From Deltaproteobacteria bacterium ADurb.Bin207 (lineage in GTDB: Bacteria > Myxococcota_A > Polyangia > Polyangiales > Polyangiaceae), in the NCBI GenBank assembly GCA_002070115.1, contig MWCO01000001.1, forward strand, positions 62,001 through 126,000: 64,000 bases of DNA, given 5' to 3'. Positions 16,277 to 20,488 of the stretch are shown one piece after another. A program made the translations under genes and the position numbers. How positions within the stretch are numbered: position 1 is the stretch's first letter; every line of letters begins with the position of its first letter. Under the pieces are notes generated by a model. The model was not told the origin of the DNA and did no database searches. It saw only the letters and a list, made by a program, of their open reading frames with translations.

Positions 16277-16666
16277 TTATTGTTTTCGGAATGGTTCCGA
16301 GCGAATCCGGGCCGTGGGGAATGTCCCAAGCACATTTCGAAGACGCTGCATCTCGTTTTCATTCAAGTCGCCGGAAGCTTGTAGTGCAGCGCGATCGCCT
16401 TGGGCGTACACCCGCAAGGAAGCGCTTGGCACAGGACGTCGTCCGAGAACATCATTCAATTCCCGCACGAGTTTTTTAGGGGCGCGACCTCGGAGAGAAA
16501 CGATCCTCCCTCTTTGCACTTTTGCAGAAAACAACAGAGTGGCGTTGCGGTTCATCACGAGCATGATTCCCAACGCCAAGACTGCCAAACCGAGGATCAC
16601 TGCCGTCGTCACGGGCCCATTTTGCCAGAATGGACGGGATTGTTCAGCTTTCGAATGACGAGGCAT
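16277..16666 (-). CDS. DUF3634 family membrane-anchored protein
   Basis: This 129-residue protein has an N-terminal membrane helix (about residues 18-38, VTTAVILGLAVLALGIML). A small domain follows with RGRIVSLRGRAPKKLVREL and a C-terminal RNVLGTFPTARIR. That combination matches DUF3634, a short single-helix family of Myxococcota and other Proteobacteria with no known function. I start it at ATG 16666; a longer frame to 16714 adds 16 unlikely residues. It is divergent from the Ser/Thr kinase, 60 bases away. Confidence 0.75.
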   Translation of the reverse strand: MPRHSKAEQSRPFWQNGPVTTAVILGLAVLALGIMLVMNRNATLLFSAKVQRGRIVSLRGRAPKKLVRELNDVLGRRPVPSASLRVYAQGDRAALQASGDLNENEMQRLRNVLGTFPTARIRSEPFRKQ

Positions 16667-16726
16667 CAAACAGATGGCCCAGGTGCTTGACCCGATGGCC
16701 TTGCGCTGCCACAAGGCAGGTTAGAA

Positions 16727-17923
16727 TTGACTAGCGCTCCTGCCCTCACCCAGCTTGCTGCACCCCGCACGTTCGGTCGCTATCAACTCTTTGATCGTAT
16801 TGGCGCCGGGGGAATGGCCGAGATTTATCTGGCAAGAGCCACCACGGAACTCGGCGGCGCACGCCTGACCGTTGTCAAGCAAATCCGTCCCGAACTATCC
16901 GGCAATGAAAAATTTGCCGAAATGCTGACGGTCGAAGCCAAGCTCGCCGCTCGACTCAACCACGCCAACATTGTGCAAGTCTTCGACCTAGGACGTCATG
17001 AAAACGTTCTTTTCATCGCGATGGAATATGTCGAAGGCTTCGATCTCAACGAATTGTTACGACGTTGCGCGCGAGCGCATATCCCACTGCCGGTCGACTT
17101 TGCTTTGCTCATCATCATGGAAGCCTTGCGTGGCTTGAGCTATGCGCATCGGCTGGTCGATGATCGGGGCGAGGCCATCGGTCTCGTGCATCGCGATGTT
17201 TCTCCTTCCAACGTTCTCATCAGCTTCGAAGGGGAGGTCAAGCTATGCGACTTTGGTATCGCACGGGCCAATGACATGGCGGACCTGTTGTCGGATGATG
17301 TCATCAAAGGAAAAGCGGGCTATATGAGCCCAGAGCAAGCCTTTGGCGAGCCCCTCGACGCGCGAGCCGACCTTTTTGCCGCGGGAATTGTGCTGTGGGA
17401 ACTGCTTGCGGGGAGAAAATTGTACCGTGCGCCCAAAGAAAATGAAAAGCCCACACTGCTCGATCAAGCCCGTGCCGCTGTCATCCCCGACCTGCCCAGC
17501 CGCGGACTTCCCGACGAATCCGTTCTGAACGGTATCGTACGACGCGCCCTCGCACGCAATCGCGACGACCGCTACGCATCCGCGCAACAAATGCTTCGGG
17601 ACCTCGAACAATATGTGGGACAAGCCCGCCTGATGGCTAGCCCCATCCGATTCGGCGAATGGCTTCGCGAAAACTTCGAAGAAAATGTGATCGCCCTGCG
17701 ACGCTCCCGCGAACGCGCTGCAAAAGCCCTACAACAAGGCCCCGCCGCTACCGTCGAACCCTACGGAACCCCTCCGCCCCCCCCCACCCTTCCGCCATGG
17801 AACCCGCCCCCGTCGTCGAACAGACCCCGAACTCCTCTCCACAACCTCGTTCCAACCTGGCGCTGTACATCGCCCTCGGGGTTTTCATCGGCTTCGTCAT
17901 CGTCGGCGTCCTATGGGCTCTGA
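16727..17923 (+). CDS. Hanks-type Ser/Thr protein kinase, C-terminal anchor out of frame
   Basis: Residues about 16-295 are a complete protein kinase domain: glycine loop IGAGGMAEIY, Lys51 in VVKQI, HRDVSPSN with Asp157, DFG at 175-177, and GYMSPEQ. The HRDVSPSN loop is typical of myxobacterial kinases. The translation as given runs into a Ser-rich tail with no anchor. A run of nine C residues at 17777-17785 sits in the Pro-rich linker. In the adjacent frame, from there to the stop at 17926-17928, lies a linker plus a membrane helix (LALYIALGVFIGFVIVGVLW), the normal end of such kinases. Ten C residues would restore it. The start is TTG 16727 with an AGG upstream. Confidence 0.88.
   Translation: MTSAPALTQLAAPRTFGRYQLFDRIGAGGMAEIYLARATTELGGARLTVVKQIRPELSGNEKFAEMLTVEAKLAARLNHANIVQVFDLGRHENVLFIAMEYVEGFDLNELLRRCARAHIPLPVDFALLIIMEALRGLSYAHRLVDDRGEAIGLVHRDVSPSNVLISFEGEVKLCDFGIARANDMADLLSDDVIKGKAGYMSPEQAFGEPLDARADLFAAGIVLWELLAGRKLYRAPKENEKPTLLDQARAAVIPDLPSRGLPDESVLNGIVRRALARNRDDRYASAQQMLRDLEQYVGQARLMASPIRFGEWLRENFEENVIALRRSRERAAKALQQGPAATVEPYGTPPPPPTLPPWNPPPSSNRPRTPLHNLVPTWRCTSPSGFSSASSSSASYGL
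17777..17785 (+). repeat. Run of nine C residues at a frame break in the kinase gene
   Basis: This homopolymer is exactly where the kinase reading frame must change to reach the membrane-anchor codons. One extra C gives a continuous frame ending at 17928. It may be a phase-variable tract, a slippage site or a sequencing error. Confidence 0.7.
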
Positions 17924-17928
17924 CCTGA

Positions 17929-18232: not shown

Positions 18233-20488
18233 GTGCTGCTCGCACAAGTTGCCATCCCCATTCCTCTCGAACGCGCCTTTACCTACGCGGTGCCCGACCA
18301 GTATGCCCCGCGGATTGCTCCCGGTATGCGCTGCTTGTGCAAATTTCGTCGTCGCCTCGTGGTGGGGGTCATCATCGCGGTGGAGCAGGCGCAGGCTCCC
18401 GCGGGAATCAAGCTGATTGCCTTGGAGGAATTGATCGACGACATCCCTTCGGTGCCGGAGGAGTTGCTACAGTTTTTGTTGCGTCTTTCTTCGTACTACC
18501 TGGCGCCGATCGGGGAGGTGTTGCGGTTGGCGTTGCCGGTATTGGAGCATCAGCGGGCGGACCGACTTCGGACGAAACTTCCGTTATTTGCTGAGCCGCC
18601 TCGTGCTGTGGAGCGATCGGTGTTGGTGGCGTATCCCGTGGCGAGCACACCGCAGACTCCGGCTCTTCGTGGGGCTCCTGCTTCCGTCTTGACCCATTTG
18701 CGAACGGTGGGGCCCACGGCCATCGTGCGATTGGCGGAAGAGTATGCCAATGCACGGTCGGCGGTGAAGCGATTGGAGTCGTTGGGATTGGTGACGGTTC
18801 GACGGGAGGCGCAAAAAGAGGCGCCATTTTTTCATGACACGAAGGCCCGGGAGTCGGCGCCGGTGCCTACCGAGTCGCAGAAAACCGCGATCGAACATAT
18901 CGAAAAGGCGCTCCTGGCTGGAATCCCACGGTCATTTTTGCTTCACGGCGTGACGGGTTCGGGCAAGACGGAGGTGTATTTACGAGCGATCGAGGCGTGT
19001 CTGCGGGCCGAGCGGGGGGCGTTGGTCCTCGTGCCCGAAATCGCGTTGACTCCCCAGCTCATCGCTCGTTTTCGATCCCGTTTTGGCGATGGGGTTGCGG
19101 TGATTCATAGCGGATTGAGTCGTCGGGCCCGATACCAAATGTGGAAATCGCTGAGGGAAAACAAGGTGTCGGTGGCGATCGGCGCGCGCTCGGCGATTTT
19201 TGCCCCCGTACCTCGCTTGGGGTTGGTGATCGTCGACGAAGAGCACGACGGTTCTTTCAAGCAAGAAGAAGGGGTTCGCTACCAAGGCCGGGACATGGCG
19301 TTGTTGCGGGCGCATCTGGCGGGGGCGGTATGTGTTTTGGGATCGGCCACGCCGAGTCTCGAGTCGGAAGGTTTGGTGCAACAGGGCAAGCTGACACGGC
19401 TTCGACTGCCAGATCGGGCCACTCGTGCGGCTTTACCCGCGGTCGAGTTGGTGGATCTACGACGGACGGGATCGCTGCCATCGACGCATTCCATGCTGTC
19501 TTTGCCGTTGTATCGCGCCATAGAGACGGCGTTGGCGGCTGGCGAGCAGGCCATTGTTTTTCTCAATCGGCGGGGCTTTGCGCCGAGCATTCAATGCGAA
19601 GGTTGTGGCACGATACTACAATGTCCCACCTGCTCGGTATCTACGACCTTGCATCGCGCGGGGGGAGCGCGTCTTCGTTGTCATTATTGTGACTACGAGG
19701 CCGCGATGCCGTCTGCCTGCGCCGCCTGTGGTTGTCCGCGTCTTGCCATGGTGGGGATTGGTACCGAAAGGCTGGAAGAGGTACTCGCCCTGGCTTTTCC
19801 GCAAGCGCGGGTCGCGCGGCTCGACCGGGATGTGGCGCCGGGAATTCGCAGTGAAGCGGTGATCGAGCGGATGCGACGCAAAGAAGCGGATATTTTGGTG
19901 GGAACCCAGATGGTGACGAAAGGGCATGACTTGCCAGACGTCACGGTGGTGGGGGTGATCAACGCGGATGTAGCGTTGTCGATGCCTGATTTTCGAGCTT
20001 CGGAGCGGACGTTTCAGCTTTTGGTGCAAGTGGCGGGTCGAGCGGGCCGGGCCGAACGCCCAGGGCGAGTCCTCATTCAAACCCGCATTCCAGAGCATCC
20101 CGTGCTTGCCCACGCGGTTACCCACGACGTGGCTTCCTTCACGAAAACGGAATTGGTGAACCGCAAAGAAGCAGGCTATCCACCGTATTATCGCCTGGTG
20201 CTCGTTCGACTCGATGGGCCAGACCTTGACGAAGTGATTCGGGAGGCCGAACGACTGGCGAGCCATGCTCGCGTCCAGACCCAAGTGCTGAGCCATGGGG
20301 TCGAAGTGCTTGGTCCATCGCCTGCTCCCATCGAGAAACTTCGGGGAAGATTCCGTTTTCGGATTCTGTTGCGTGCCGTGCAGCGACCGGCGTTGCGAGC
20401 GGTCGTCGCCGCTATCCAACAAGTTCGAGAACATCGCTCCTCCCGGGTGCGCGTCGTTCTCGATGTCGATCCGATGCACATGCTTTGA
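18233..20488 (+). CDS. priA: Primosomal protein N' (replication restart helicase)
   Basis: The 751-residue protein has the N-terminal DNA-binding domain start (VAIPIPLERAFTYAVP). It then has a superfamily-2 helicase core: Walker A GVTGSGKTEVY, the DEEH box in VIVDEEHDGSFKQ, and later GTQMVTKGHD and QVAGRAGRAERPG. The inserted zinc-binding module shows four CxxC pairs (CEGCG, CPTC, CHYC, CAACGC). PriA recognises stalled forks and reloads the replisome. The length is normal. The start is GTG 18233 with a GTGGGA stretch upstream. It is followed 90 bases later by the AmpG-like permease in the same direction. Confidence 0.97.
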   Translation: MLLAQVAIPIPLERAFTYAVPDQYAPRIAPGMRCLCKFRRRLVVGVIIAVEQAQAPAGIKLIALEELIDDIPSVPEELLQFLLRLSSYYLAPIGEVLRLALPVLEHQRADRLRTKLPLFAEPPRAVERSVLVAYPVASTPQTPALRGAPASVLTHLRTVGPTAIVRLAEEYANARSAVKRLESLGLVTVRREAQKEAPFFHDTKARESAPVPTESQKTAIEHIEKALLAGIPRSFLLHGVTGSGKTEVYLRAIEACLRAERGALVLVPEIALTPQLIARFRSRFGDGVAVIHSGLSRRARYQMWKSLRENKVSVAIGARSAIFAPVPRLGLVIVDEEHDGSFKQEEGVRYQGRDMALLRAHLAGAVCVLGSATPSLESEGLVQQGKLTRLRLPDRATRAALPAVELVDLRRTGSLPSTHSMLSLPLYRAIETALAAGEQAIVFLNRRGFAPSIQCEGCGTILQCPTCSVSTTLHRAGGARLRCHYCDYEAAMPSACAACGCPRLAMVGIGTERLEEVLALAFPQARVARLDRDVAPGIRSEAVIERMRRKEADILVGTQMVTKGHDLPDVTVVGVINADVALSMPDFRASERTFQLLVQVAGRAGRAERPGRVLIQTRIPEHPVLAHAVTHDVASFTKTELVNRKEAGYPPYYRLVLVRLDGPDLDEVIREAERLASHARVQTQVLSHGVEVLGPSPAPIEKLRGRFRFRILLRAVQRPALRAVVAAIQQVREHRSSRVRVVLDVDPMHML

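What the first reader, a model, noticed from the sequence alone, without database searches (positions are those of the whole stretch)
16727..17928. Ser/Thr kinase with a switchable membrane anchor at a C9 tract
The membrane helix of the kinase is in a different frame, reached only if the run of nine C at 17777-17785 gains one base. Such homopolymers cause phase variation in other bacteria, so the cell may make anchored and soluble kinase forms. A sequencing error is the main alternative.
Basis: partly seen in the sequence, partly recalled or inferred. Interest (0 to 1): 0.55.

Follow-up and report, generated by a model that had tools for sequence, protein, structure and literature searches.

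The report
Frame-broken tail-anchored kinase, probably not switchable
A common membrane-tethered protein kinase of myxobacteria is cut off from its membrane tail by the length of a run of nine Cs, which looks like a one-off sequence error or recent slip rather than an evolved on/off switch.

Summary
A TTG-started Ser/Thr kinase ORF (16727-17923) carries C9 at 17777-17785, and a helix of the tail-anchor type lies in the -1 frame (open 17641-17928). Coding signal switches frame at the tract. The out-of-frame tail aligns with the membrane tails of the closest relatives; the in-frame tail does not. So the helix is the ancestral tail of a conserved tail-anchored kinase, often next to priA.

The switch is not supported. 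No examined relative has a run longer than 7 in this tail. The genome has no excess of long C tracts. Of 21 well-scored genes with C/G runs of 9 or more, 17 keep frame, 3 end naturally just after the tract, and the kinase alone is broken. No stimulatory RNA structure was found. Runs of C>=9 sit at contig ends far too often (6 of 44), so the assembly is weakest there. Consensus error is most likely, then a recent non-programmed slip. Reversible phase variation stays possible; only reads or other isolates can tell.

The parts
16727..17923 (+). Hanks-type Ser/Thr kinase ORF as assembled (TTG start; kinase domain then out-of-frame tail)
   Evidence: ORF; PF00069, 119.5 bits, residues 19-283; TTG at the same place in relatives L037 and L038
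17777..17785 (+). run of nine C, codons CCC CCC CCC in the kinase frame; site of the frame change
   Evidence: sequence; coding frame changes here
17776..17928 (+). membrane-tail coding region in the -1 frame: Pro/Ala-rich linker, then helix, stop at 17926-17928
   Evidence: translation; hydropathy 2.75, aligns with tails of L037, L038, L039; 0 of 1000 shuffles as good
17786..17923 (+). kinase-frame tail, 45 residues and stop, negative coding score, no helix; probably not a natural C-terminus
   Evidence: score -10.7 over 45 codons; alignment scores 17-31 against relatives' tails, versus 57-78 for the other frame
16277..16714 (-). divergent neighbour, DUF3634 protein
   Evidence: PF12321, 52.6 bits; found beside the kinase in 7 of 50 relatives
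18233..20488 (+). downstream neighbour, primosomal helicase PriA
   Evidence: beside the kinase in 23 of 50 relatives (leaving out one 28% hit, L054, taken as another helicase)

Best explanation
The gene is a conserved C-terminally tail-anchored Ser/Thr kinase of Polyangia-type Myxococcota with a whole kinase domain: kinase domain, Pro-rich linker, one helix, a few residues, stop. In this one genome the C run in the Pro-rich linker has a length that puts the anchor out of frame. Most likely the assembled length is wrong (about 0.5) and the cells make the ordinary anchored kinase. Next most likely, it is a real, recent slip in this strain that releases the kinase (about 0.25). Either way it is a non-programmed singleton, not an evolved switch. 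Shown: anatomy, ancestral continuous frame, break at the tract, its uniqueness among examined relatives. Inferred: error versus true mutation.
For: Continuous kinase-linker-helix frame in 26 of 26 complete relatives from the genome search (3 of 29 run off their contig) and 44 of 47 complete ones in named genomes (50 of the 80 loci examined); all 23 with priA adjacent have the helix. The two sets overlap. The three closest (73-76% in the best segment) have C5, no long run and C3 at this site. No relative tail examined has a run over 7. Own-genome C9-to-C6 window ratio 0.0142 versus median 0.0135 in 58 relatives, 28 of which are higher. Of 21 well-scored genic C/G runs of 9 or more, 17 continue in frame, 3 end 9-14 codons later, 1 (the kinase) breaks. 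6 of 44 C>=9 tracts lie within 60 bp of a contig end, 0.18 expected. PMC3711429 (passages) says singleton frameshifted genes are likely indel mutations or sequencing errors, while clustered ones may be programmed or phase-variable.
Against: The other genic C/G runs of 9 or more in this assembly are in frame or at natural gene ends, so errors at such runs are not general here. The membrane frame is undecayed, as a reversible switch would also predict. Three distant relatives lack a helix. No reads or same-species genomes were available.
Confidence: 0.75

Rival explanations
1. Phase variation: replication slippage at the C tract reversibly switches cells between anchored and released kinase, both with a whole kinase domain.
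For: C9 in the gene; the only broken one of 21 well-scored genic runs; intact anchor frame; precedent of a C6/C7 tract in the sensor kinase gene bvgS of Bordetella pertussis (PMC1891110, passages).
Against: Tract not kept in relatives; no genome-wide excess of long C tracts; the released form has a tail with negative coding score.
Confidence: 0.15
2. Recoding: a -1 ribosomal slip on C CCC CCC (17779-17785, zero frame) or RNA polymerase slippage makes a fraction of anchored kinase from the C9 gene.
For: The heptamer is in the right frame and a -1 slip leads straight into the helix frame (read).
Against: No unusual downstream structure (z 0.33; z -0.37 for the wider stretch); the slippery run is absent in relatives, so there is no conserved recoding site.
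Confidence: 0.1
3. A fixed, recent real frameshift: this strain has lost the anchor and lives with a soluble kinase (the second branch of the best explanation, listed apart).
For: The break is single and the anchor frame is undecayed. Three distant kinases (L081, L083, L084; 50-52%) end without a helix and share a similar tail, so helix-less forms exist, though none has priA beside it.
Against: Helix kept in every complete close relative examined.
Confidence: 0.25

Closest known systems
Hanks-type (PknB-like) bacterial Ser/Thr kinases of myxobacteria
   Same: Kinase domain PF00069 with glycine loop, HRD and DFG motifs (motif names recalled, read in the translation); one membrane helix after the domain
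   Different: No extracytoplasmic sensor domain: relatives end a few residues after the helix
bvgS of Bordetella pertussis, a kinase gene switched by a C tract
   Same: C run in the coding region of a kinase gene; a length change shifts the frame (PMC1891110, passages)
   Different: There the C7 allele truncates and inactivates BvgS and mixed alleles were measured; here the kinase domain stays whole and no length variation has been shown
dnaX-type programmed frameshift genes (recalled)
   Same: Slippery homopolymer in the right frame
   Different: No stimulatory structure found and the site is not conserved in relatives

Membership tests
Hanks-type Ser/Thr kinase | Pkinase domain above the curated cut-off | tested here: met
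   PF00069, 119.5 bits against cut-off 31.7
Tail-anchored kinase | single C-terminal helix in the same frame as the kinase | tested here: not met
   Helix in -1 frame as assembled; met in 26 of 26 and 44 of 47 complete relatives
Phase-variable contingency gene | long homopolymer in the coding region at the frame change | tested here: met
   C9 at 17777-17785
Phase-variable contingency gene | tract length varies within the population | not testable with these tools
   No reads; no other genome of the genus among the 59 searched
Phase-variable contingency gene | tract kept in relatives | tested here: not met
   No run over 7 in any examined relative tail; C5, no long run and C3 in the closest three
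Programmed -1 frameshift | slippery heptamer in the zero frame | tested here: met
   C CCC CCC at 17779-17785, read
Programmed -1 frameshift | downstream stimulatory RNA structure | tested here: not met
   z-score 0.33 and -0.37
Programmed -1 frameshift | conserved frame change in orthologs | tested here: not met
   All complete close relatives examined are in one frame

The most novel reading that the evidence does not exclude
A young, species-specific contingency switch that changes where a signalling kinase sits, membrane or cytoplasm, without touching its catalytic domain, by C-tract slippage in its linker.
Probability: 0.13. Interest if true: 0.6.

Novelty: new member of a known kind. Interest (0 to 1): 0.15.

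Why it matters
If the switch were real, it would be phase variation of a kinase's location rather than its presence. As the evidence stands, it is mainly a caution: a broken frame at a poly-C run in a draft assembly should be checked against relatives before being called a switch. It also documents a conserved tail-anchored kinase that often lies beside priA.

Tried and rejected
One search read the loci of the genome search without turning the minus-strand ones and gave false tails; one search replaced it.

A first frame test around the 44 C>=9 tracts flagged several apparent shifts; reading the frames showed that several of the flagged genes continue through the tract (for example a RadC-like, a mevalonate-decarboxylase-like and an RCC1-like protein; these names are recalled from reading the translations and come from no call). 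Some flagged tracts are not clearly in a gene. One search is the count used; it leaves out tracts without a strong upstream coding signal.

A chance origin of the helix was rejected. Programmed frameshifting was considered and given low weight.

Literature: searches listed no paper whose title shows a phase-variable kinase in Myxococcota. Only listings were seen, except passages of PMC1891110 and PMC3711429.

Not done: the 30 more distant loci L087-L116 were not examined; other possible frame breaks in the window were not checked by homology; no structure was predicted.

Full report
Observation. The window lies in contig 1 (62001-126000) of a 6.55 Mb, 220-contig genome. A kinase ORF starts with TTG at 16727 and ends at 17923; Pfam finds PF00069 at residues 19-283, well before the tract, so either C-terminus leaves a whole kinase domain. 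C9 is at 17777-17785. The -1 frame, open from 17641 to 17928, encodes a linker and a helix of hydropathy 2.75 followed by four residues.

Is the break real in the sequence? A codon model trained on 27 other window ORFs gives the best single switch near 17793, with all positions within 2 nats between 17757 and 17798; the unswitched frame scores -5.7 against 21.3. A Viterbi segmentation of the whole window splits the gene at 17791/17792 (same codon table). The helix frame aligns to the tails of the three closest named relatives with scores 78, 57 and 62 (0 of 1000 shuffles as good each time), against 20, 17 and 31 for the kinase-frame tail.

What the gene should look like. Of 29 hits fetched as loci from related genomes (own gene left out; one search listed further hits that were not fetched), 26 are complete and all 26 end in a helix in one frame; 3 run off their contig. 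In named genomes I examined the 50 best of 80 loci returned: 47 are complete, 44 with the helix, 3 without; 3 more run off the contig, one of them already showing a helix. The two sets share genomes. The three without a helix are at 50-52% identity, share a similar tail, and lack priA nearby, so they may be paralogues. PriA is beside the kinase in 23 of 50 loci, and all 23 have the helix; DUF3634 is beside it in 7 of 50. Some of these loci are cut short by contig ends, so the neighbour counts are lower bounds. The helix is therefore the ancestral tail anchor.

Is it a switch? Against: the longest run in any examined relative's tail is 7; the closest three have C5, no long run and C3 at the site. 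Long C runs are not in surplus here: the ratio of C9 to C6 windows is 0.0142 against a median of 0.0135 in 58 relatives, with 28 of 58 higher. Of 44 C>=9 tracts, 21 lie in a gene with strong upstream coding signal; 17 stay in frame, 3 belong to genes ending 9-14 codons later, and one, the kinase, breaks. So neither general mis-sequencing nor a general phase-variable repertoire is seen. Six of the 44 tracts lie within 60 bases of a contig end where about 0.18 would be expected (contig lengths were at hand for only some contigs, so six is a lower bound). This points to trouble of the reads or assembler at such runs. For: the break is at the longest C run of the gene's tail and the helix frame is undecayed.

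Other routes. A -1 slip on C CCC CCC (17779-17785) would lead into the helix frame, but no stimulatory structure is predicted and the site is not conserved.

Literature. PMC1891110 (passages) describes a C6/C7 tract in bvgS, the nearest precedent for a C-tract-switched kinase. PMC3711429 (passages) holds that singleton frameshifted genes are likely indel mutations or sequencing errors, while clustered ones may be programmed or phase-variable. This gene is a singleton among the relatives examined here.

Verdict. An ordinary conserved tail-anchored kinase with a one-genome frame break at C9. Consensus error about 0.5, recent fixed slip about 0.25, phase variation about 0.15, recoding about 0.1; these are my judgements, not computed values.

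Noticed in passing
G000 contigs C17, C34, C75, C92, C156, C168 (L137, L145, L154, L157, L163, L164): Six of 44 C>=9 tracts of this genome lie within 60 bp of a contig end, about 0.18 expected: poly-C runs break this assembly.
   Followed up: partly
L158, run at locus position 1501 (G000:C108:1769-1784): A run of sixteen G/C lies inside a gene that stays in frame; an unusually long run, worth a look for length variation.
   Followed up: no
L081, L083, L084: Three distant relatives of the kinase share a similar helix-less C-terminal tail and lack priA nearby: possibly a soluble sister group.
   Followed up: partly
L114 (CAMDBH010000003.1): A metagenome bin titled Klebsiella pneumoniae encodes a kinase 39% identical to this one; the label is doubtful.
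   Followed up: no
window:16277-16714 (-): A DUF3634 protein of unknown function is divergently placed beside the kinase here and in 7 of 50 relatives; a possible functional partner.
   Followed up: no
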